Source of the DNA: Candidatus Aenigmatarchaeota archaeon
GTDB lineage: Archaea; Aenigmatarchaeota; Aenigmatarchaeia; Aenigmatarchaeales; JAHLMR01
DNA: 13,073 nt
Reading direction: 5' to 3'
Assembly: GCA_018920255.1 (NCBI GenBank)
Contig: JAHLMR010000013.1
Coordinates: forward strand, 1 to 13,073
The notes under the pieces are model-generated. The model was not told the DNA's origin. It saw nothing but the letters and a program-made list of their open reading frames with translations, and did no database searches. The position numbers and the translations under genes were made by a program. How positions within the stretch are numbered: the stretch's first letter is position 1; every line of letters starts with the position of its first letter. Below are positions 5,341 through 13,073 of the stretch, in pieces.

Positions 5341-5727
5341 ATGACAGAATTAGGTCAAGTCTATAAATGTCAGATTTGCGGAAATATTGTAAGTGTAATG
5401 CATGCTGGAATAGGAATACTGGTTTGTTGTGGTCAGCCAATGGTTTTATTGAAAGAGAAGATAGAAGAAGAAGGAAAAGAAAAGCACTTACCAGTTGTTA
5501 CAATAAATAAAAACAATATACATGTAAAAGTTGGTTCAATTGAACATCCGATGGAAAGCAATCATTATATTGAATGGATTGAGGTTATAACTGAAAATAA
5601 AAAATATATAAAATTTCTTTCTCCAGGATCTAAACCAGAAGCAGATTTTGAAATTAAAGATAAAATAATTGCTGTCCGTGAATATTGTAATGTGCATGGT
5701 TTATGGAAAAAAATAGTAAAAAATTAA
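5341..5727 (+). CDS. dfx: Desulfoferrodoxin (two-iron superoxide reductase)
   Basis: 128 aa, the usual length of the two-domain form. Superoxide reductase reduces superoxide to hydrogen peroxide without making oxygen, a defence typical of anaerobes; it is cytoplasmic. Seen: an N-terminal desulforedoxin domain with YKCQICG (C10, C13) and VCCGQPM (C29, C30), which would hold the rubredoxin-like Fe(Cys)4 centre; then the catalytic domain with EKHLPVV (E47, K48, H49), VGSIEHPMESNHYIEW (H69, H75) and EYCNVHGLW (C116, H119). The four His and one Cys match the Fe(II) ligands of the active centre, and E47/K48 the conserved residues that assist superoxide binding, so both centres look complete. Electrons normally come from rubredoxin or similar; no such gene is in view. 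The stop lies only six bases from the 3' end of the opposing mTERF-like gene. Confidence 0.97.
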   Translation: MTELGQVYKCQICGNIVSVMHAGIGILVCCGQPMVLLKEKIEEEGKEKHLPVVTINKNNIHVKVGSIEHPMESNHYIEWIEVITENKKYIKFLSPGSKPEADFEIKDKIIAVREYCNVHGLWKKIVKN

Positions 5728-5733
5728 TTATTT

Positions 5734-6702
5734 TTAATATTTTTCATAAAAATATTCATCACTTGAACGAAATATTCTAGCTAAAGGAAGGTGTTTACCC
5801 TTACCCTTTAAATACTTAATTCTTTTTTCAATACATTCTAAAGATCTCCCCAGGCATGCTGGAAAATTCTCTATTTCTTCTATACTATATCCATTTTTTT
5901 CTAAATATTTGATTTTTTCATTTAAACTTTCAATTTTATAATTTAGTATAGCAGGATAAGAATTAATTAATTTTTTAATATTAAATCCGTGTTTTTCTAA
6001 ATTTTTTATTTTTTCCTCAATTGTTTTTTTGTTCTGGCCTAAAAAATTTGGATTTAATTCTATAACGTTTTTTAATCTACATCCTATTTCTTCAAGATAT
6101 TTAATTTTTTCTTCTAAAGTTTCTATTTTAAGACCTATTATTGAAGGACATTTTTCAACAACTTTTATTGTATCTATATCATTTTCTTTTAAAAAACTAA
6201 TTTTTTCATTTATATTTTCTAGAGAATAGTTAAAAATCTGTGGAAATTTTTCTATTACTTTTTTTGAATCGATATTTCTTTTATTTAAATATTCTATAAT
6301 TTCTTCCATTTTTTCCTTTGAACAACCAATATCAATACGATTTAAAATTTTACAAGATTCAATTCCGTAATTAGATAAAAGATTATAAATTTCTTTTAGT
6401 TTTCCACTTCCATGACTAAAGAATTTATCATTACATTTTATTTCCGTACCGTCGTTTATTTCTTTCAAAAACTTATATGTATTTATTATTTCTTCATATG
6501 AAATTTCAACTTCAGATTTTGGAACTTTACCAAAAAGATATTCTATAAATAATTTCTTTTTTTCCTTTTCTCCATATTTTGTATTATTTTTTACTCTCCT
6601 TAATGGATTTTGATATTCCCTATAATTTGCGCCCTTTTTTACTAATTCCGCAAGTAACTTACAATCATATTCAAATTCACTTTTTTCAAAATTACTTTTC
6701 AT
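5734..6702 (-). CDS. mTERF-like helical repeat protein
   Basis: 322 aa, no signal peptide or membrane segment, very Lys/Glu/Ile-rich, so probably cytoplasmic. Seen: an unassigned helical N-terminus (1-110), then a degenerate repeat (about 111-142) and five repeats of 32, 32, 32, 32 and 31 residues (143-301). Each reads roughly G-x-x-[IL]-K-K-[VL]-I-x-x-x-P-x-[IL]-[LI]-x-x-x-x-E-[ST]-[IL]-x-E-K-I-K-Y-L-E-x, with prolines at 154, 186, 218, 250 and 281. A short tail (302-322) has RSSDEYFYEKY. The proline position, repeat length and final SLE-IEKRIKYL-G-SD-F-KY layout match the mTERF family (mitochondrial/plastid transcription termination factors), superhelical nucleic-acid binders. That assignment comes from pattern recognition, without a profile search. 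If correct, a DNA- or RNA-binding role in transcription or RNA handling is inferred. Its own TATA-like box lies about 30 bases before the ATG. Another alpha-solenoid family is the main alternative. Confidence 0.7.
   Translation of the reverse strand: MKSNFEKSEFEYDCKLLAELVKKGANYREYQNPLRRVKNNTKYGEKEKKKLFIEYLFGKVPKSEVEISYEEIINTYKFLKEINDGTEIKCNDKFFSHGSGKLKEIYNLLSNYGIESCKILNRIDIGCSKEKMEEIIEYLNKRNIDSKKVIEKFPQIFNYSLENINEKISFLKENDIDTIKVVEKCPSIIGLKIETLEEKIKYLEEIGCRLKNVIELNPNFLGQNKKTIEEKIKNLEKHGFNIKKLINSYPAILNYKIESLNEKIKYLEKNGYSIEEIENFPACLGRSLECIEKRIKYLKGKGKHLPLARIFRSSDEYFYEKY
5736..5756. terminator. Inverted repeat with T-runs at a convergent gene junction
   Basis: A perfect 9-base inverted repeat (arms AATATTTTT at 5736-5744 and AAAAATATT at 5748-5756, 3-base loop) lies at the 3' end of the minus-strand gene, overlapping its stop and last codons. 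TTTTT runs at 5731-5735 and 5740-5744 follow the dfx stop on the plus strand; T-runs are the usual archaeal termination signal. The arms are pure A/T and could arise by chance in this composition. Confidence 0.3.
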
Positions 6703-6761: not shown

Positions 6762-7922
6762 CTATTTCAAAAAATTTCTTATAATCTCTTTGTAAATTTT
6801 TGCAGCATTTACTAAATCTTTTATTTCTATATACTCATCTTTTATATGACAATTTTCAGGCTTTCCCGGTCCAAAAACAATGCAAGGAAATCCATTAGAA
6901 ATAAAATAGCCAGCACCAGTTGCTCCATGTTCTCCAACTATTTTAGGTTCTTTATTTAAAACAGATCTTATAGATTCCTGTATTATTTTTATTGTTTTTT
7001 CATCATACGATGGTTTAACGGGTGGATAATACAGCAATTCTTTTATTTCTATTTTCATATTTTTATCTTCTTCTGACAATCTGTTTATAATTTCTCTTAT
7101 TAAATCTATAATTGCTTCTTTCTTTTCTTCAGGTATTAATCTTATATCAAGTTGAGCCTTTGCAATTCCTGGAATGACGTTTGTTTTTATTCCAGAATTA
7201 AATATTGTTATTGAAATAGTAGAGTTTCCTAATAATTCATTTTTCCCTTCAATTTTCATATTTTGAATATGATATAAAACTTTGTTTAATTTTTCTAATG
7301 CATTAACTCCTGTCCATGGCATTGATGCATGTGCTTCTTTTCCATAAGATATTAATTCAAGCCACAAAATTCCTTTTTCTGATACAACTAAATCAAAATT
7401 TGTTACATCACCAATTATTACTAAACTATTTTTTTGTTTTTTCATTTTTTTAATTATACCACGCATTCCAATTTCTTCATTATCACCCATTTCTTCATTT
7501 ACTGTGAAAATAAACTTAAGGCAGCCGTTTGGCTTCCACCCTTCACGTTTTAATGATGCTACTGCTTCTATCATTGAAGCTAGACAACCCTTCATGTCTG
7601 TTGCTCCTCTTCCATAGATTTTCCCATTTGTAACCTTTCCTTCAAATGGAGAATATTTCCATCCTTCTCCAGCAGGAACTGTATCTAAATGTCCATTTAA
7701 AATTAAAGTTTTTTCAGATTTTTCAGAACCAAGCGTTGCAATAATATTTGGTCTATTTTTTGCAATTTCAATTTGTTCTACCTTAAAACCAATTTGTTTT
7801 AAAAGATTTGAAATTAAATCAGATAACTTCTTTTCATTTCCGGGTGGATTTGAAGTATTTATTTGTATAAATTTTTTAGTTAAAGAAACAATTGCTTTTT
7901 CATCTATTTCTTGTTTTTTCAT
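6762..7922 (-). CDS. M20 family metallopeptidase/deacylase (ArgE/DapE/ACY1 type)
   Basis: 386 aa, the normal length. M20 enzymes are cytoplasmic two-zinc hydrolases of peptide or N-acyl bonds. Seen: the catalytic domain with NGHLDTVP (H78 zinc ligand, D80 catalytic), GRGATDMKG (D109, bridging zinc ligand), TVNEEMGD (E143 general base, E144 zinc ligand) and GDVT (D172, the usual ligand position); a dimerisation/lid domain (about 190-300) with GKEAHASMPWTGVNA and TNVIPGIAKAQLDIRLIP; and a return to the catalytic fold with GPGKPENCHIKDEY (H359, last ligand). All expected ligands are present, so it looks active. GATGAGYF stands where ArgE/DapE usually have a G-T/A-D motif; that Asp is not a metal ligand. 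Substrate cannot be told: acetylornithine, succinyl-diaminopimelate, acetyl-lysine or dipeptides are all possible, and no biosynthetic neighbours help. The start is supported by a TATA box about 25 bases upstream. Confidence 0.92.
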   Translation of the reverse strand: MKKQEIDEKAIVSLTKKFIQINTSNPPGNEKKLSDLISNLLKQIGFKVEQIEIAKNRPNIIATLGSEKSEKTLILNGHLDTVPAGEGWKYSPFEGKVTNGKIYGRGATDMKGCLASMIEAVASLKREGWKPNGCLKFIFTVNEEMGDNEEIGMRGIIKKMKKQKNSLVIIGDVTNFDLVVSEKGILWLELISYGKEAHASMPWTGVNALEKLNKVLYHIQNMKIEGKNELLGNSTISITIFNSGIKTNVIPGIAKAQLDIRLIPEEKKEAIIDLIREIINRLSEEDKNMKIEIKELLYYPPVKPSYDEKTIKIIQESIRSVLNKEPKIVGEHGATGAGYFISNGFPCIVFGPGKPENCHIKDEYIEIKDLVNAAKIYKEIIRNFLK

Positions 7923-8002: not shown

Positions 8003-11000
8003 ATGAAAAAATTTATCTATTTATTTATAATACAAATTTTAATTTTATCATTAAATGTGTATAGTGCAAATATTTATGTTTCTTCGAGCACATTTTGTCC
8101 TTCTAATACATCTTCTGATATTTATTATATAAATACAAATGTTGTTTTCAATTGTACTACTCCAATAAACATTAATACAACTTCTTATGCAATTATTATA
8201 AATTCAAATAATATTAAATTAGATTGTAACAATACTTTAATTTTTGGAAATAAAACTTTAATATCTACAACATATGGAATTTATGTATCTAACAAAAATA
8301 ATATTACAATAGAAAATTGTATTATTTCTGGATATACTAATGGAATTTATTTTAATTCTGTTTCAAATAGTAGTATAAAAAATTCTACATTATTTGAAAA
8401 TTCTAGAGAAGGAGGTTTTATGGAAGCTGCAATAATAATAAATGGAGGAAGAAATAATTCGATATTTGATTCATTAATATTTAATAATTCTGTTTCTGGA
8501 ATTTATTTAGAATCTACAAATAACAACACAATTTATAATACAACATTATTTGAAAACAGATATTTTGGATTATTTATTAGATATTCTTCATATACAAATA
8601 TATCAAACAATATTTTTTCAAAAAACGAATGGGCTGGAGTTTATTTAGAAGGTTCTCACAATAATTCTATAGAAAATAATATATTATCTGAAAATACTTA
8701 TAACGGAATAACATTTCATGTGAATAATAATTATAATTTAATAAAAAATAATATATTTATAAACAATACTAGAAGAGCACTTCATTTTTATTATTATCCT
8801 AAACATTCACAAATAATTAATAATACGTTTTTTGGAAGTGGTTTGTTTATAGACCCACAATATGAAACAATTTATGAGCCAACTAATTTTACAATATTAA
8901 ATAATACAGTTAATGGACTTCCTATAGTTTATTTAAAAAATATTAATAATTTAATATTTAATGAAGATGCAGGGCAAATAATTTTAGAAAATGTAACAAA
9001 TATTACAATATCTAATTATAATTTCTATGATAATTCAGTTGGAATAACTTTATTAAATGCTTACAATATAACATTAATAAATAATACTTTTCAAAACAGC
9101 GGGGTATTTTTACAACTTTCTAAAAATAATACATTTTTAAACAATTATGTAAATGGAAAACCTCTAGTATATTTAGAAAATAAAGATAATTATGTTGTAG
9201 AAGATGCAGGACAAGTTATAGTTATAGATTCAACAAATATATCAATAAAAAATTTAAATCTTTCAAATACGGTTTCTGGGATTTTTTTAATAAATGTTTC
9301 AAATAGTTTAATTTATAATAATTTTATAGCAAACAATTCTTTTAGTGGTATATACGTTACATCATCTTCAAGTAATGAATTCATAGAAATAGAAAACAAT
9401 ACTATAGAAAATTGTTCATGGCCAGGAATACTAAGTTTTAAAGATTATTTAAAAATTTCTAATAATAAAATTAAAAATAATTATCCAGATGGAATATGTA
9501 TTATTAATATGTATTCATTAATTTTTGATAATGAAGTAGTTGGAAATCAAGACGATGGTATTTCTTTATTATATTTTAAAAATTTTGTATACAACAATTA
9601 TGTTGAAAATAATAGATGGGGAATAGCATCACAGCCATATGAATATGGCTATAATTATATTTTTAAAAATATACTAATGAATAATACACAAATAGGTATA
9701 TTTTTAAAAAATAATAAAGATACAATAGTAAATGATAATTTATTAAAAGATAACATAATTGGTATTTATGGTTGTTGCGGTTATGGTTTAATTAATATTA
9801 CAATTATAAATAATACAATAATAAATAGTTATCATGCAATGAAATTTGATCCCCTTCCTGCAGGTAATACTAATATACAAATTTTAAACAATAAATTAAT
9901 AAATGGAAGTTATTATGGAATTTATGTAAGAAATATGACTGGACAAATTGAAAATAATAGTATTAGTAATTTTAAAATTAATTTTTATGTAAGAGATATT
10001 ATTTCTAATTTAAGTATAAAAAATAATACAATTTTAAATGGATTTGACTATGGAGTTTATTTATTAAACACAAATAATACAAATTTTCAAAATAATATTT
10101 TATATTTTAATAATAGATCAATTTACTTAACTTCTTCAAATAATAATAGTTTTGAAAATAATACAATTTGTTATAATAAATATGGTATTTATAATAATAC
10201 GCCAAACATAATAAAAAATAATATTTTTTGTGCAGATTTTATTAGTTTTCCACAAACTTGGACTATAAATCCTATTTCAAACATTTCAATAAATGTTTCA
10301 AATATCTTATTCCAACCAGCATCTTGTTATTTTAAAATTAATAATAATTTGCTTGGAATAAATGAAACTGTTTATGATTTTCAATTAATTAATTTTAATT
10401 TTTCAGAAATTTCTTCAGAAGGAGTTTATAATATAAATGTATATTGTAATGATAGCACAGGGACAAATTATGCAAACAATTCAAAATATTTTGTAATTGG
10501 AGATGTTTCTATTTTAGATTTAATTTTTGAACAAGAAACAATATATACTACAACAAATATAAATGCAAAACTATTATTAAATTCTTCTGGACCAGCAAAT
10601 TTAAATATAACTATTTATTTAAACGGAACTTATTTTTATTCAAATTTAACAAATATAGATTTAGGTATAAATGAAATACCAATAAATATTGGAAAGTTAA
10701 ATTCTGGAAGTTATGAAATAAAAGTACAAATAGATCCAGATAATAATTTATCAGAATTAAATGAAAGTAATAATGAAATTATAAAAAATATAATTGTTAA
10801 ATTAGCTCAATCCGGACCAACAATATTAGAGTCTCCTAAAGAATTTTCAAGTATTCAAATAATTCCAGCTCAAAAATTAATTAGTTTTGATTTTTTGAAC
10901 TATAGTATTTTTGAAATTGATTTAATTTTTTCAAAAGATGTTTCAAATATTTCATTATCATTAAATAAAACAAGTATATGTAGTCAAATAGAAGAAGTTC

Positions 11001-11497
11001 AAAGAAAAAATTATGATTGTTATGAAATTAAAAAAGTAAATTTTTTAGATTCAGATATTTTAAATGTATTTTTAAGATTTAAAGTTTCAAAGAAATGGAT
11101 TAAAGAAAATAATATAGAAAAATATTCAATAAAATTATATAGATATAATGATGGTGTCTGGAATGCAATTCAAACAAAATTAGTAGAGGAAGATGAAGAA
11201 TATATTTATTTTGTTTCTGAAACAAAGTATTTATCAATATATTCAATATCAGGACAAGTTAAAACAATAACAGCTCCAAGTGAAGAAAAGCCAACAGCTC
11301 CAACTGAAGAAAAACCAACTGAAAAGTCAACAGAAAAACCTGCAGATTATACAATGATTCTTTTAGGAATAATTATAATACTTTTAATTATAAATATTCT
11401 TATTAAAAAGTTTTTTAAATATAGAATTAAATCAAAAAATAAAAAAATGATTAAAATGAAAAGTCAAAAATTAAAAATAAGGAGGCGATTAAAATGA
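8003..11497 (+). CDS. Membrane-anchored parallel beta-helix (NosD-like) surface protein
   Basis: 1164 aa, complete. Seen: a signal peptide (about 1-22); a long right-handed parallel beta-helix region (about 30-740) of roughly 22-25 residue coils rich in Asn, such as GIYLESTNNNTIYNT and GVYLEGSHNNSIENN; two embedded NosD-type modules with NGLPIVYLKN...EDAGQIIL and NGKPLVYLEN...EDAGQVIV; an Ig-like segment (about 750-832); a CARDB-like domain (about 834-930, ending SELNESNNEIIKNIIV); a PGF-pre-PGF-like domain (about 945-1085, with FRFKVSKKWI-type core LRFKVSKKWIKENNIE and YIYFVSETKYLSIYSISG); a Pro/Thr/Glu/Lys stalk (about 1090-1114); one transmembrane helix (about 1117-1136); and a highly basic 28-residue cytoplasmic tail. 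Beta-helix coils of this type occur in polysaccharide-binding or cleaving proteins and adhesins; no catalytic residues are identified, so adhesion or surface-layer function is an inference. Many N-x-S/T sequons suggest heavy N-glycosylation. It overlaps the next gene by four bases. Confidence 0.9.
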   Translation: MKKFIYLFIIQILILSLNVYSANIYVSSSTFCPSNTSSDIYYINTNVVFNCTTPININTTSYAIIINSNNIKLDCNNTLIFGNKTLISTTYGIYVSNKNNITIENCIISGYTNGIYFNSVSNSSIKNSTLFENSREGGFMEAAIIINGGRNNSIFDSLIFNNSVSGIYLESTNNNTIYNTTLFENRYFGLFIRYSSYTNISNNIFSKNEWAGVYLEGSHNNSIENNILSENTYNGITFHVNNNYNLIKNNIFINNTRRALHFYYYPKHSQIINNTFFGSGLFIDPQYETIYEPTNFTILNNTVNGLPIVYLKNINNLIFNEDAGQIILENVTNITISNYNFYDNSVGITLLNAYNITLINNTFQNSGVFLQLSKNNTFLNNYVNGKPLVYLENKDNYVVEDAGQVIVIDSTNISIKNLNLSNTVSGIFLINVSNSLIYNNFIANNSFSGIYVTSSSSNEFIEIENNTIENCSWPGILSFKDYLKISNNKIKNNYPDGICIINMYSLIFDNEVVGNQDDGISLLYFKNFVYNNYVENNRWGIASQPYEYGYNYIFKNILMNNTQIGIFLKNNKDTIVNDNLLKDNIIGIYGCCGYGLINITIINNTIINSYHAMKFDPLPAGNTNIQILNNKLINGSYYGIYVRNMTGQIENNSISNFKINFYVRDIISNLSIKNNTILNGFDYGVYLLNTNNTNFQNNILYFNNRSIYLTSSNNNSFENNTICYNKYGIYNNTPNIIKNNIFCADFISFPQTWTINPISNISINVSNILFQPASCYFKINNNLLGINETVYDFQLINFNFSEISSEGVYNINVYCNDSTGTNYANNSKYFVIGDVSILDLIFEQETIYTTTNINAKLLLNSSGPANLNITIYLNGTYFYSNLTNIDLGINEIPINIGKLNSGSYEIKVQIDPDNNLSELNESNNEIIKNIIVKLAQSGPTILESPKEFSSIQIIPAQKLISFDFLNYSIFEIDLIFSKDVSNISLSLNKTSICSQIEEVQRKNYDCYEIKKVNFLDSDILNVFLRFKVSKKWIKENNIEKYSIKLYRYNDGVWNAIQTKLVEEDEEYIYFVSETKYLSIYSISGQVKTITAPSEEKPTAPTEEKPTEKSTEKPADYTMILLGIIIILLIINILIKKFFKYRIKSKNKKMIKMKSQKLKIRRRLK
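11481..11489 (+). promoter_or_regulatory. Strong Shine-Dalgarno of the second beta-helix gene
   Basis: GGAGGCGAT ends four bases before the ATG at 11494 and lies within the last codons of the first beta-helix gene. It fixes the start in the ATGA overlap and indicates strong, coupled translation. Confidence 0.8.
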
Positions 11498-13073
11498 AAA
11501 GTAATATATTAATAATTATATTAAGTCTTTTATTAGTTTTCGGAAGTTTTGGATTTTCTGTTGATATTGATACTTGTCAAGAAATAAATTCCGAGGGTGA
11601 ATATGTTTTAACAAAAGATTTAACAAGTGACGGTATATGTATAACAATTACAGCATCAAATGTTATTCTTGATGGTGCAGGATATTGGATAAACAGAACA
11701 GGGGGTTCTGGAGATGCTTATGGAATTTATGTTAATAATGTTGAGAATGTAACTATTAAAAATGTAAATGCTGCAGACTGGACTATTGGGATTTTTATAA
11801 GTTATTCCTCAAATATCAGCCTAACAAACAACACAGCAAATTCAAATGGTAACGGAATTTCTTTATATTTTTCCTCAAACAACACGCTAACAAACAACAC
11901 GGCAAACTCAAATGGTTTCGGAATTCATATATACAAATCATCAAACAACATCTTAATAAATAACATTGTAAATTCGAATAATCAGAATGGAATTATTTTA
12001 TCTTTTTCCTCAAACAACACATTAATAAACAACACCGCAGGCTCAAATGGAGTAGGAATTTATTTATATTCTTCCTCAAACAACACATTAATAAATAACA
12101 CAGCAAAGTCAAATGGTAACGGAATTTATTTACACGCTTTTTCATCAAACAACACTTTGACAAATAACATTGCAAGTACAAATAAAAACACCGGAATTTA
12201 TTTATATTCTTCCTCAAACAACACATTAATAAACAACACAATGAACAACAATACATATAATTTTGGCATGTATGGATACGCTATTTCACATTATTATCAA
12301 GATGTTGATACTTCAAACACAGTTGATGGAAAACCAATTTATTATTGGACAAATGAAAAAAACGCTCCAAATAACTGTAAAAACGCAGAAATAAATGAAT
12401 CAAGTAATGCTGGCTTTGTTGCATTAGTTTCTTGTGATAATATTACAGTAAAAAATTTAAATTTAAGTAAAAACTCTCATGGAATTTTATTAGTAAATAC
12501 AACAAATAGTAAAATTTCAAATAATAATATAAACTCAAATTGGCGTGGAATTTATTTATATTCTTCCTCAAACAACACTTTGACAAATAACATTGGAAGT
12601 ACAAATAACGACACCGGAATTTATTTATATTCTTCCTCAAACAACACGCTAATAAACAACACGGCAAACTTAAATTATAATGGAATTTATTTATATTCTT
12701 CCTCAAACAACACATTGACAAACAACAATGCAAGCTCAAATATTGATTACGGAATTTCTTTATACTCTTCCTCAAATAATACCCTGACAAACAACACAAT
12801 GAACAACAATAAATATAATTTTGGCATAGCTGGGGCGAGTATTTCACATTATTATCAAGATGTTGATACTTCAAACACAGCTGATGGAAAACCAATCTAT
12901 TATTGGACAAATGAAAAATATGCTCCAAATAATTGTAAAAATGCAGAAATAAATGAATCAATTAATGCTGGCTTTGTTGCATTAGTTTCTTGTGATAATA
13001 TTACAGTAAAAAATTTAAATTTAAGTAAAAACTCTCATGGAATTTTATTAGTAAATACAACAAATAGTAAAAT
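11494..13073 (+). CDS. Second parallel beta-helix (NosD-like) surface protein, C-terminus off window
   Basis: 526 complete codons with no stop before the right edge. Seen: a signal peptide (about 1-22, core ILIIILSLLLVFGSFGF); an N-terminal cap with two Cys (C28, C49) and ITASNVILDGAGYWI, typical of NosD-like proteins; then beta-helix coils of 22-24 residues, consensus G-I-Y-L-Y-S-S-S-N-N-T-L-x-N-N-T-A-x-S-N-x. These are interrupted twice by a roughly 95-residue module: YNFG, SHYYQDVDTSN, DGKPIYYWTNEK, APNNCKNAEINES, GFVALVSCDNITVKNL, SKNSHGILLVNTTNS. The module is the same NosD type as in the upstream protein but carries a Cys pair absent there, a possible disulfide. The coils are far more regular at DNA level than those of the upstream gene, with more AAC and TCC codons. 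The role is inferred as a cell-surface adhesin or glycan-binding protein co-expressed with its neighbour. Confidence 0.9.
   Translation, partial: MKSNILIIILSLLLVFGSFGFSVDIDTCQEINSEGEYVLTKDLTSDGICITITASNVILDGAGYWINRTGGSGDAYGIYVNNVENVTIKNVNAADWTIGIFISYSSNISLTNNTANSNGNGISLYFSSNNTLTNNTANSNGFGIHIYKSSNNILINNIVNSNNQNGIILSFSSNNTLINNTAGSNGVGIYLYSSSNNTLINNTAKSNGNGIYLHAFSSNNTLTNNIASTNKNTGIYLYSSSNNTLINNTMNNNTYNFGMYGYAISHYYQDVDTSNTVDGKPIYYWTNEKNAPNNCKNAEINESSNAGFVALVSCDNITVKNLNLSKNSHGILLVNTTNSKISNNNINSNWRGIYLYSSSNNTLTNNIGSTNNDTGIYLYSSSNNTLINNTANLNYNGIYLYSSSNNTLTNNNASSNIDYGISLYSSSNNTLTNNTMNNNKYNFGIAGASISHYYQDVDTSNTADGKPIYYWTNEKYAPNNCKNAEINESINAGFVALVSCDNITVKNLNLSKNSHGILLVNTTNSK
11854..12228 (+). repeat. 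Beta-helix coil repeats, first block
   Basis: Coils begin with GGAATT at 11854, 11920, 11989, 12055, 12121 and 12193, spaced 66, 69, 66, 66 and 72 bases. All steps are multiples of three. The core CCTCAAACAACAC is nearly invariant. These are coding repeats for 22-24 residue beta-helix turns. Confidence 0.88.
12193..12750 (+). repeat. 558-base in-frame tandem unit, copy 1
   Basis: The unit holds one coil, the Cys-containing NosD module (from about 12229 to 12515) and three further coils (starting 12547, 12616 and 12682). It equals 186 codons. The next unit starts directly at 12751. Confidence 0.85.
12751..13073 (+). repeat. 558-base in-frame tandem unit, copy 2 (cut by window edge)
   Basis: Matches copy 1 base for base at an offset of 558 without gaps. 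From 12799 on I count about 17 mismatches in 275 bases, most in one short patch (about 12827-12839). The last 111 visible bases (12963-13073) are identical to 12405-12515. More of the unit lies beyond the edge. Confidence 0.85.

What the first reader, a model, noticed from the sequence alone, without database searches (positions are those of the whole stretch)
5734..6702. mTERF-like repeat protein encoded in an archaeal genome
Five consecutive 31-32 residue helical repeats with prolines at 154, 186, 218, 250 and 281 and a C-terminal layout (SLE, EKRIKYL, SD, F, KY) look like a textbook mTERF array. The mTERF family is known mainly as organellar transcription and RNA factors of animals and plants, so an intact member between ordinary archaeal genes would bear on the family's origin or on transfer. 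It could be a transcription or RNA-binding factor not described for this lineage. Codon use and AT richness match the neighbours, so any transfer is not recent.
Basis: partly seen in the sequence, partly recalled or inferred. Interest (0 to 1): 0.65.

Follow-up and report, generated by a model that had tools for sequence, protein, structure and literature searches.

The report
Archaeal mTERF nucleic-acid-binding repeat protein
A tiny-genome archaeon carries an intact gene for a coiled repeat protein of the mTERF family, a DNA- and RNA-binding family described almost only in mitochondria and chloroplasts, and scattered relatives in other archaea suggest that the family has a largely undescribed prokaryotic branch.

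Summary
Window 5734-6702 (-) encodes a 322-aa protein that matches Pfam mTERF (PF02536) at E = 2.7e-30, 105.8 bits against a cut-off of 23.1. All five Pro-anchored repeats carry the canonical Pro8 / hydrophobic 11-18-25 motif. A model folded from this sequence alone matches human MTERF3 at Z 19.1 (2.5 A over 225 residues, to the last residue); the best non-mTERF fold, a TAL effector, reaches 8.6. Neighbours are archaeal (proteasome alpha, GatD, GatE).

It is not unique. PF02536 rings in 3 of 156 genomes of its phylum, 3 of 87 of a second archaeal phylum and 27 of 301 of a third, in at least three subfamilies. It was not found in five smaller archaeal phyla.

In nine archaeal arrays with near-identical repeats, variation between repeats peaks around the motif proline, at or next to the positions where human MTERF1 contacts DNA (R162, F243, F322). 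This favours modular base recognition, as shown experimentally for bacterial pTERF proteins (PMC11417379, 2024), which lack the canonical proline motif.

Most likely it is a cytosolic, sequence-specific nucleic-acid-binding protein acting in transcription or RNA metabolism. Binding and target are inferred. It is a new member of a known family in a domain of life for which I found no description.

The parts
5734..6702 (-). mTERF-family protein, 322 aa, pI 8.9, 38 kDa
   Evidence: Pfam PF02536 E=2.7e-30; human MTERF1/3/4 chains by phmmer 5e-7 to 7e-5; fold Z 19.1 to MTERF3
5842..6318 (-). repeat region, about five 31-32-residue three-helix mTERF repeats with prolines at residues 154, 186, 218, 250, 281 (residues 129-287)
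   Evidence: Lag-32 periodicity; helix pattern long-short-short per repeat in the model; Pro8 and hydrophobic 11/18/25 in 5 of 5 repeats
5737..5841 (-). C-terminal segment of the mTERF fold (residues 288-322: LECIEKRIKYLKGKG...RSSDEYFYEKY)
   Evidence: Profile match to position 313/314; structural alignment to MTERF3 residue 402 and MTERF1 residue 392
6319..6702 (-). N-terminal helical region (residues 1-128); residues 81-98 at low confidence
   Evidence: Model pLDDT and DSSP
6762..7922 (-). M20-family peptidase, upstream on the same strand with a 59-bp gap; possible co-transcription (inference)
   Evidence: PF01546 E=9e-42
5341..5727 (+). desulfoferrodoxin, convergent with the mTERF gene, stop codons 6 bp apart
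   Evidence: PF01880 and PF06397

Best explanation
The gene encodes a genuine mTERF-family protein: a right-handed superhelix of three-helix repeats closed by the family's C-terminal segment. It most likely acts in the archaeal cytosol as a sequence-selective nucleic-acid-binding protein, wrapping the major groove of DNA (or structured RNA) with the line of motif prolines, each repeat offering side chains next to its proline to the bases. The likely cellular role is control of transcription (pausing or termination as a roadblock) or of RNA and ribosome assembly. Shown here: sequence family, motif register, predicted fold, archaeal context, relatives, and the place of between-repeat variation in related archaeal arrays. 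Inferred: binding, choice of DNA over RNA, target and role.
For: PF02536 E=2.7e-30. phmmer to human MTERF1/3/4 in PDB. A profile built only from archaeal members aligns end to end with human MTERF3, C-terminal segment included, E=4.4e-17. A single-sequence AlphaFold2 model (pLDDT 77.6) shows the three-helix repeat and gives Z 19.1 to MTERF3 and 17.9 to DNA-bound MTERF1, against 8.6 for the best other fold. Canonical motif 15 of 15. Basic pI 8.9. In nine related archaeal arrays variation peaks at -1, +1, +5, +4, -2 from the motif proline; MTERF1 R162, F243 and F322 lie at -2, +1, +4. In MTERF1 the motif prolines line the major groove (PMC4705650). Bacterial pTERFs bind specific DNA with nM affinity (PMC11417379).
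Against: No binding data exist for any archaeal member. P0001's own repeats are too diverged for the array-variation test, so that evidence comes from relatives. Of four MTERF1 residues named in solved mutants, Y288 lies at +11, where the arrays do not vary. MTERF3 and MTERF4, close by fold, act on ribosome assembly (my knowledge), so RNA is as open as DNA. No conserved gene neighbourhood points to a pathway.
Confidence: 0.72

Rival explanations
1. An mTERF-fold RNA-binding factor working in ribosome or rRNA biogenesis, like MTERF3 and MTERF4, rather than a DNA-binding transcription factor.
For: Best fold match is MTERF3 (Z 19.1) and MTERF4 follows (14.3). A relative in G113 lies in a ribosomal-protein/RNA-polymerase gene cluster (L009; read by eye). 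Some plant mTERFs affect organelle RNA (PMC13126933).
Against: No rRNA methyltransferase partner next to the gene; most relatives are not near ribosomal genes. The MTERF1 match is nearly as good and longer (260 residues).
Confidence: 0.3
2. A generic or convergent alpha-solenoid that scaffolds proteins, resembling mTERF only through a helical repeat.
For: Low pairwise identity (about 20%) to human MTERFs; helical repeat proteins often match each other weakly.
Against: Only PF02536 passes its cut-off. Z stands 8-10 units above every non-mTERF fold. The non-repeated C-terminal segment also aligns.
Confidence: 0.04
3. A recent eukaryotic gene or contaminant sequence binned into the archaeal genome.
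For: The family is best known from eukaryotes.
Against: The contig holds proteasome alpha, GatD and GatE; the gene is intronless with local base composition and codon use. Homologues occur in independent archaeal genomes, one a single 0.93-Mb contig.
Confidence: 0.02
4. A secreted or host-directed repeat effector of an episymbiotic archaeon, whose repeats bind host nucleic acid, as TAL effectors do.
For: Variable repeat arrays in relatives; TAL effectors are the next fold neighbours; small genome suggests a symbiont.
Against: The N-terminus (MKSNFEKSEFEYDCKLLAELVKKG) shows no hydrophobic signal segment by eye; no secretion gene next to it.
Confidence: 0.05

Closest known systems
Human MTERF3 (PDB 3m66) and MTERF1 (PDB 3mva)
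   Same: Three-helix Pro-anchored repeats, superhelix, C-terminal segment; Z 19.1 and about 17.7; archaeal profile to MTERF3 E=4e-17
   Different: About 20% identity; no organelle; P0001's N-terminal 128 residues are only partly comparable; function in the archaeon untested
pTERF, bacterial prokaryotic mTERF-like proteins (Hu et al. 2024, PMC11417379)
   Same: Prokaryotic, metagenomic, mTERF-like three-helix repeats; shown to bind specific DNA
   Different: All reported pTERFs are bacterial (mostly Bacillota) and their authors state that Pro8 and the heptad leucines are not conserved in pTERF1; P0001 keeps both in all five repeats
TAL effectors / BurrH
   Same: Superhelical nucleic-acid-binding repeats of similar length; nearest other fold, Z about 8
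   Different: Far lower structural score; no TAL repeat profile match

Membership tests
mTERF (PF02536) | Profile match above the curated cut-off | tested here: met
   105.8 bits against 23.1
mTERF (PF02536) | Repeats of about 30-33 residues with Pro at position 8 and hydrophobics at 11, 18 and 25 | tested here: met
   5 of 5 prolines, 15 of 15 hydrophobics; background LIVMF 0.30; definition from PMC11417379 citing Roberti 2009
mTERF (PF02536) | Three short helices per repeat stacked into a superhelix like MTERF1/MTERF3 | tested here: met
   DSSP of the model; Z 19.1, rmsd 2.5 A, 225 residues. Predicted, not solved
mTERF (PF02536) | C-terminal non-repeat segment | tested here: met
   Profile to 313/314; alignment to residue 322
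mTERF (PF02536) | Nucleic-acid binding and role in gene expression | not testable with these tools
   No biochemical data
pTERF (bacterial mTERF-like) | Tandem units without the canonical Pro8 and heptad leucines (as described for pTERF1) | tested here: not met
   P0001 keeps both features. pTERF sequences themselves were not compared
TAL effector | TAL repeat profile match | tested here: not met
   No TAL effector family in the Pfam scan up to E=1; fold Z 8.6 at best

The most novel reading that the evidence does not exclude
Small-genome (probably DPANN) archaea hold an undescribed, diversified and horizontally spread branch of the mTERF family, including members with the canonical motif and the C-terminal segment of eukaryotic mTERFs. 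Their tandem repeats read bases through two to five variable positions around the motif proline, a modular recognition code comparable to that of TAL effectors. Eukaryotic organellar mTERFs would then descend from such prokaryotic stock.
Probability: 0.3. Interest if true: 0.85.

Novelty: new member of a known kind. Interest (0 to 1): 0.6.

Why it matters
mTERFs were long described as absent from prokaryotes (for example PMC3981765), and the only prokaryotic homologues reported in the literature I could search are bacterial and lack the canonical motif. Canonical members in several archaeal lineages give the family a prokaryotic side against which its origin can be tested. The near-identical archaeal arrays, varying around the residues that touch DNA in MTERF1, are also candidates for a new programmable DNA- or RNA-binding scaffold.

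Tried and rejected
Two genome-contig scans for relatives (P0001; a two-row alignment with an artificial second row to steer the peptide patterns) and five viral-contig scans found nothing. This tool needs exact 7-10-residue peptides, so its silence says little. tblastn of P0001 against phages and plasmids: nothing; the G113 relative gave one weak Streptomyces plasmid hit, annotated as a tetratricopeptide protein. Conserved neighbourhood: none across 12 flanks except a C39-peptidase-like gene near two members (L050, L055). A tree of 25 archaeal proteins gave few supported branches and no supported placement of P0001; origin and direction of transfer are therefore left open.

Full report
Observation. 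Window 5734-6702, minus strand, is a complete 322-codon ORF. Its C-terminal two thirds repeat with a period of 32 residues: the lag-32 BLOSUM62 sum is +140, against a best of 23 in 2000 shuffles.

Family. Against Pfam-A only mTERF (PF02536) passes its cut-off: E=2.7e-30, 105.8 bits. phmmer against PDB chains finds human MTERF1, MTERF4 and MTERF3 at 5e-7 to 7e-5 and nothing else below 0.006. All five repeats carry the canonical mTERF register, Pro at 8 and a hydrophobic at 11, 18 and 25, 15 of 15. No NCBIfam model names the protein.

Fold. AlphaFold2 on the single sequence gives mean pLDDT 77.6 and, in each repeat, one long and two short helices, the second short helix starting at the proline. 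Foldseek's top 17 PDB matches are all MTERF chains or complexes that contain MTERF4. VIA-align gives MTERF3 Z 19.1 (2.5 A, 225 residues), MTERF1 about 17.7 (260 residues), MTERF4 about 14 and a Tetrahymena mitoribosome protein 13.3; TAL effectors follow at 8.6. The alignments reach residue 322, so the C-terminal segment is part of the match, which a chance repeat resemblance would not give.

Context. The window is a whole 13,073-base contig of a 552-kb assembly, 94.6% complete. Neighbours are proteasome alpha, GatD, GatE, a TPM-domain protein, LemA, desulfoferrodoxin and an M20 peptidase, followed by two Asn-rich repeat proteins that look like parallel beta-helix surface proteins (by eye, not searched). 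GC, GC3 and codon use of the mTERF gene lie within the local range. The upstream 60 bases hold AAACCTTTAAGTATT, which resembles an archaeal BRE/TATA pair, but in sequence this AT-rich I give it little weight.

Distribution. With PF02536: 3 of 156 genomes of the same phylum; none among about 89 other archaeal genomes in a sample of relatives; 3 of 87 in a second phylum, two of them over the cut-off; 27 of 301 in a third, 24 of them over the cut-off; none in five others of 29, 19, 28, 6 and 34 genomes. A profile from the archaeal members adds no further genomes in the home phylum. No bacterial genomes beyond 14 control genomes (bacteria and archaea, none over the cut-off) could be surveyed.

Subfamilies. 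By eye and by tree there are (a) proteins with a C-terminal segment resembling the eukaryotic one (for example L015 SYSLNQRIIPRYEYM, L022, L024, L044), to which P0001 and G030 are closest in general layout; (b) proteins with GLTxxKIAxxAxLLGRDPETIQRN repeats and their own C-terminus, including G113 of the home phylum, 43-45% identical to members in another phylum, which points to transfer between archaeal phyla; (c) FPxFAGxDHERV repeats with a third kind of C-terminus (branch support 98). The host genome has a second member on contig C5 made of near-identical 39-residue units and cut by the contig end. The tree does not place P0001 with support.

How it may work. In MTERF1 the motif prolines line the major groove of DNA (PMC4705650). 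PDB mutants fix the register: F243 is +1 and F322 is +4 from a motif proline (seen in the 5crk and 5crj sequences), R162 is -2, Y288 is +11. That R162, F243 and Y288 stack on flipped bases in the MTERF1-DNA complex is from my own knowledge; F322 is taken as a contact only because it was mutated in a DNA complex. In nine archaeal arrays with near-identical repeats, between-repeat entropy is highest at -1, +1, +5, +4 and -2. With one value per subfamily, positions -2, +1, +4 average 0.79 bits against 0.43 (sd 0.10) under circular rotation, fraction reaching it 0.0012; including Y288's position, 0.0018; Y288's position alone is not variable (fraction 0.49). An earlier version with nine arrays weighted alike gave 0.00005. 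I looked at the arrays before making this test, they were chosen because their repeats are alike, and their register was set by the motif itself, so this is supporting rather than decisive evidence. It fits a modular reader of nucleic acid. Bacterial pTERF1 binds ACTNNNAGTC with Kd 1.87 nM, and pTERF2 a different motif (PMC11417379).

Novelty. Literature statements that mTERF is absent from prokaryotes (PMC3981765) were first broken by bacterial pTERF in 2024, described there as distant homologues without Pro8 or the heptad leucines. That paper does not mention archaea, and searches for mTERF with archaeal lineage names found nothing. The window protein is therefore a new, canonical member of a known family in a domain of life for which I found no description. 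It is not the only one, and most subscription journals and all preprints were out of reach.

Confidence. Membership about 0.97; nucleic-acid binding about 0.8; sequence-specific DNA rather than RNA about 0.6; specific role open.

Noticed in passing
L007:2292-3071 (G000 contig C5, 3' end): Second mTERF-cut-off protein of the same genome: near-identical 39-residue units (KFEKEGLTVEKYLKAACGQPSLFYRSPDTIESNIRNLVK) varying almost only around the proline; truncated by the contig end.
   Followed up: partly
L020, L021 (G607 C1 both ends; G583 C1 and C2 ends), L010 (G330): mTERF arrays lie at contig ends, in G607 at both ends of a single 0.93-Mb contig, so near-identical repeats seem to break assemblies and array lengths are underestimated.
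   Followed up: partly
L015 / L050:5523-6608 (G516), L016 (G555), L030 (G449): mTERF reading frames interrupted by one or two in-frame stops (TAG; TAG and TAA; two TGA): decay, sequencing error or read-through not distinguished.
   Followed up: no
L009:4082-8117 (G113): An mTERF-type gene sits directly between genes that look like Rpo3 and an intein-bearing ribosomal protein L2, in a cluster of ribosomal-protein-like genes (by eye).
   Followed up: no
L050:2806-3555 and L055:5878-6675: A C39-peptidase-like gene (59% identical) lies near the mTERF gene in two genomes of different families.
   Followed up: partly
window 8003-13071: Two adjacent Asn-rich repeat proteins (1164 aa and over 526 aa) with N-terminal signal-like segments, apparently parallel beta-helix (NosD-like) surface proteins; the second shows long internal duplications and is cut by the contig end.
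   Followed up: no
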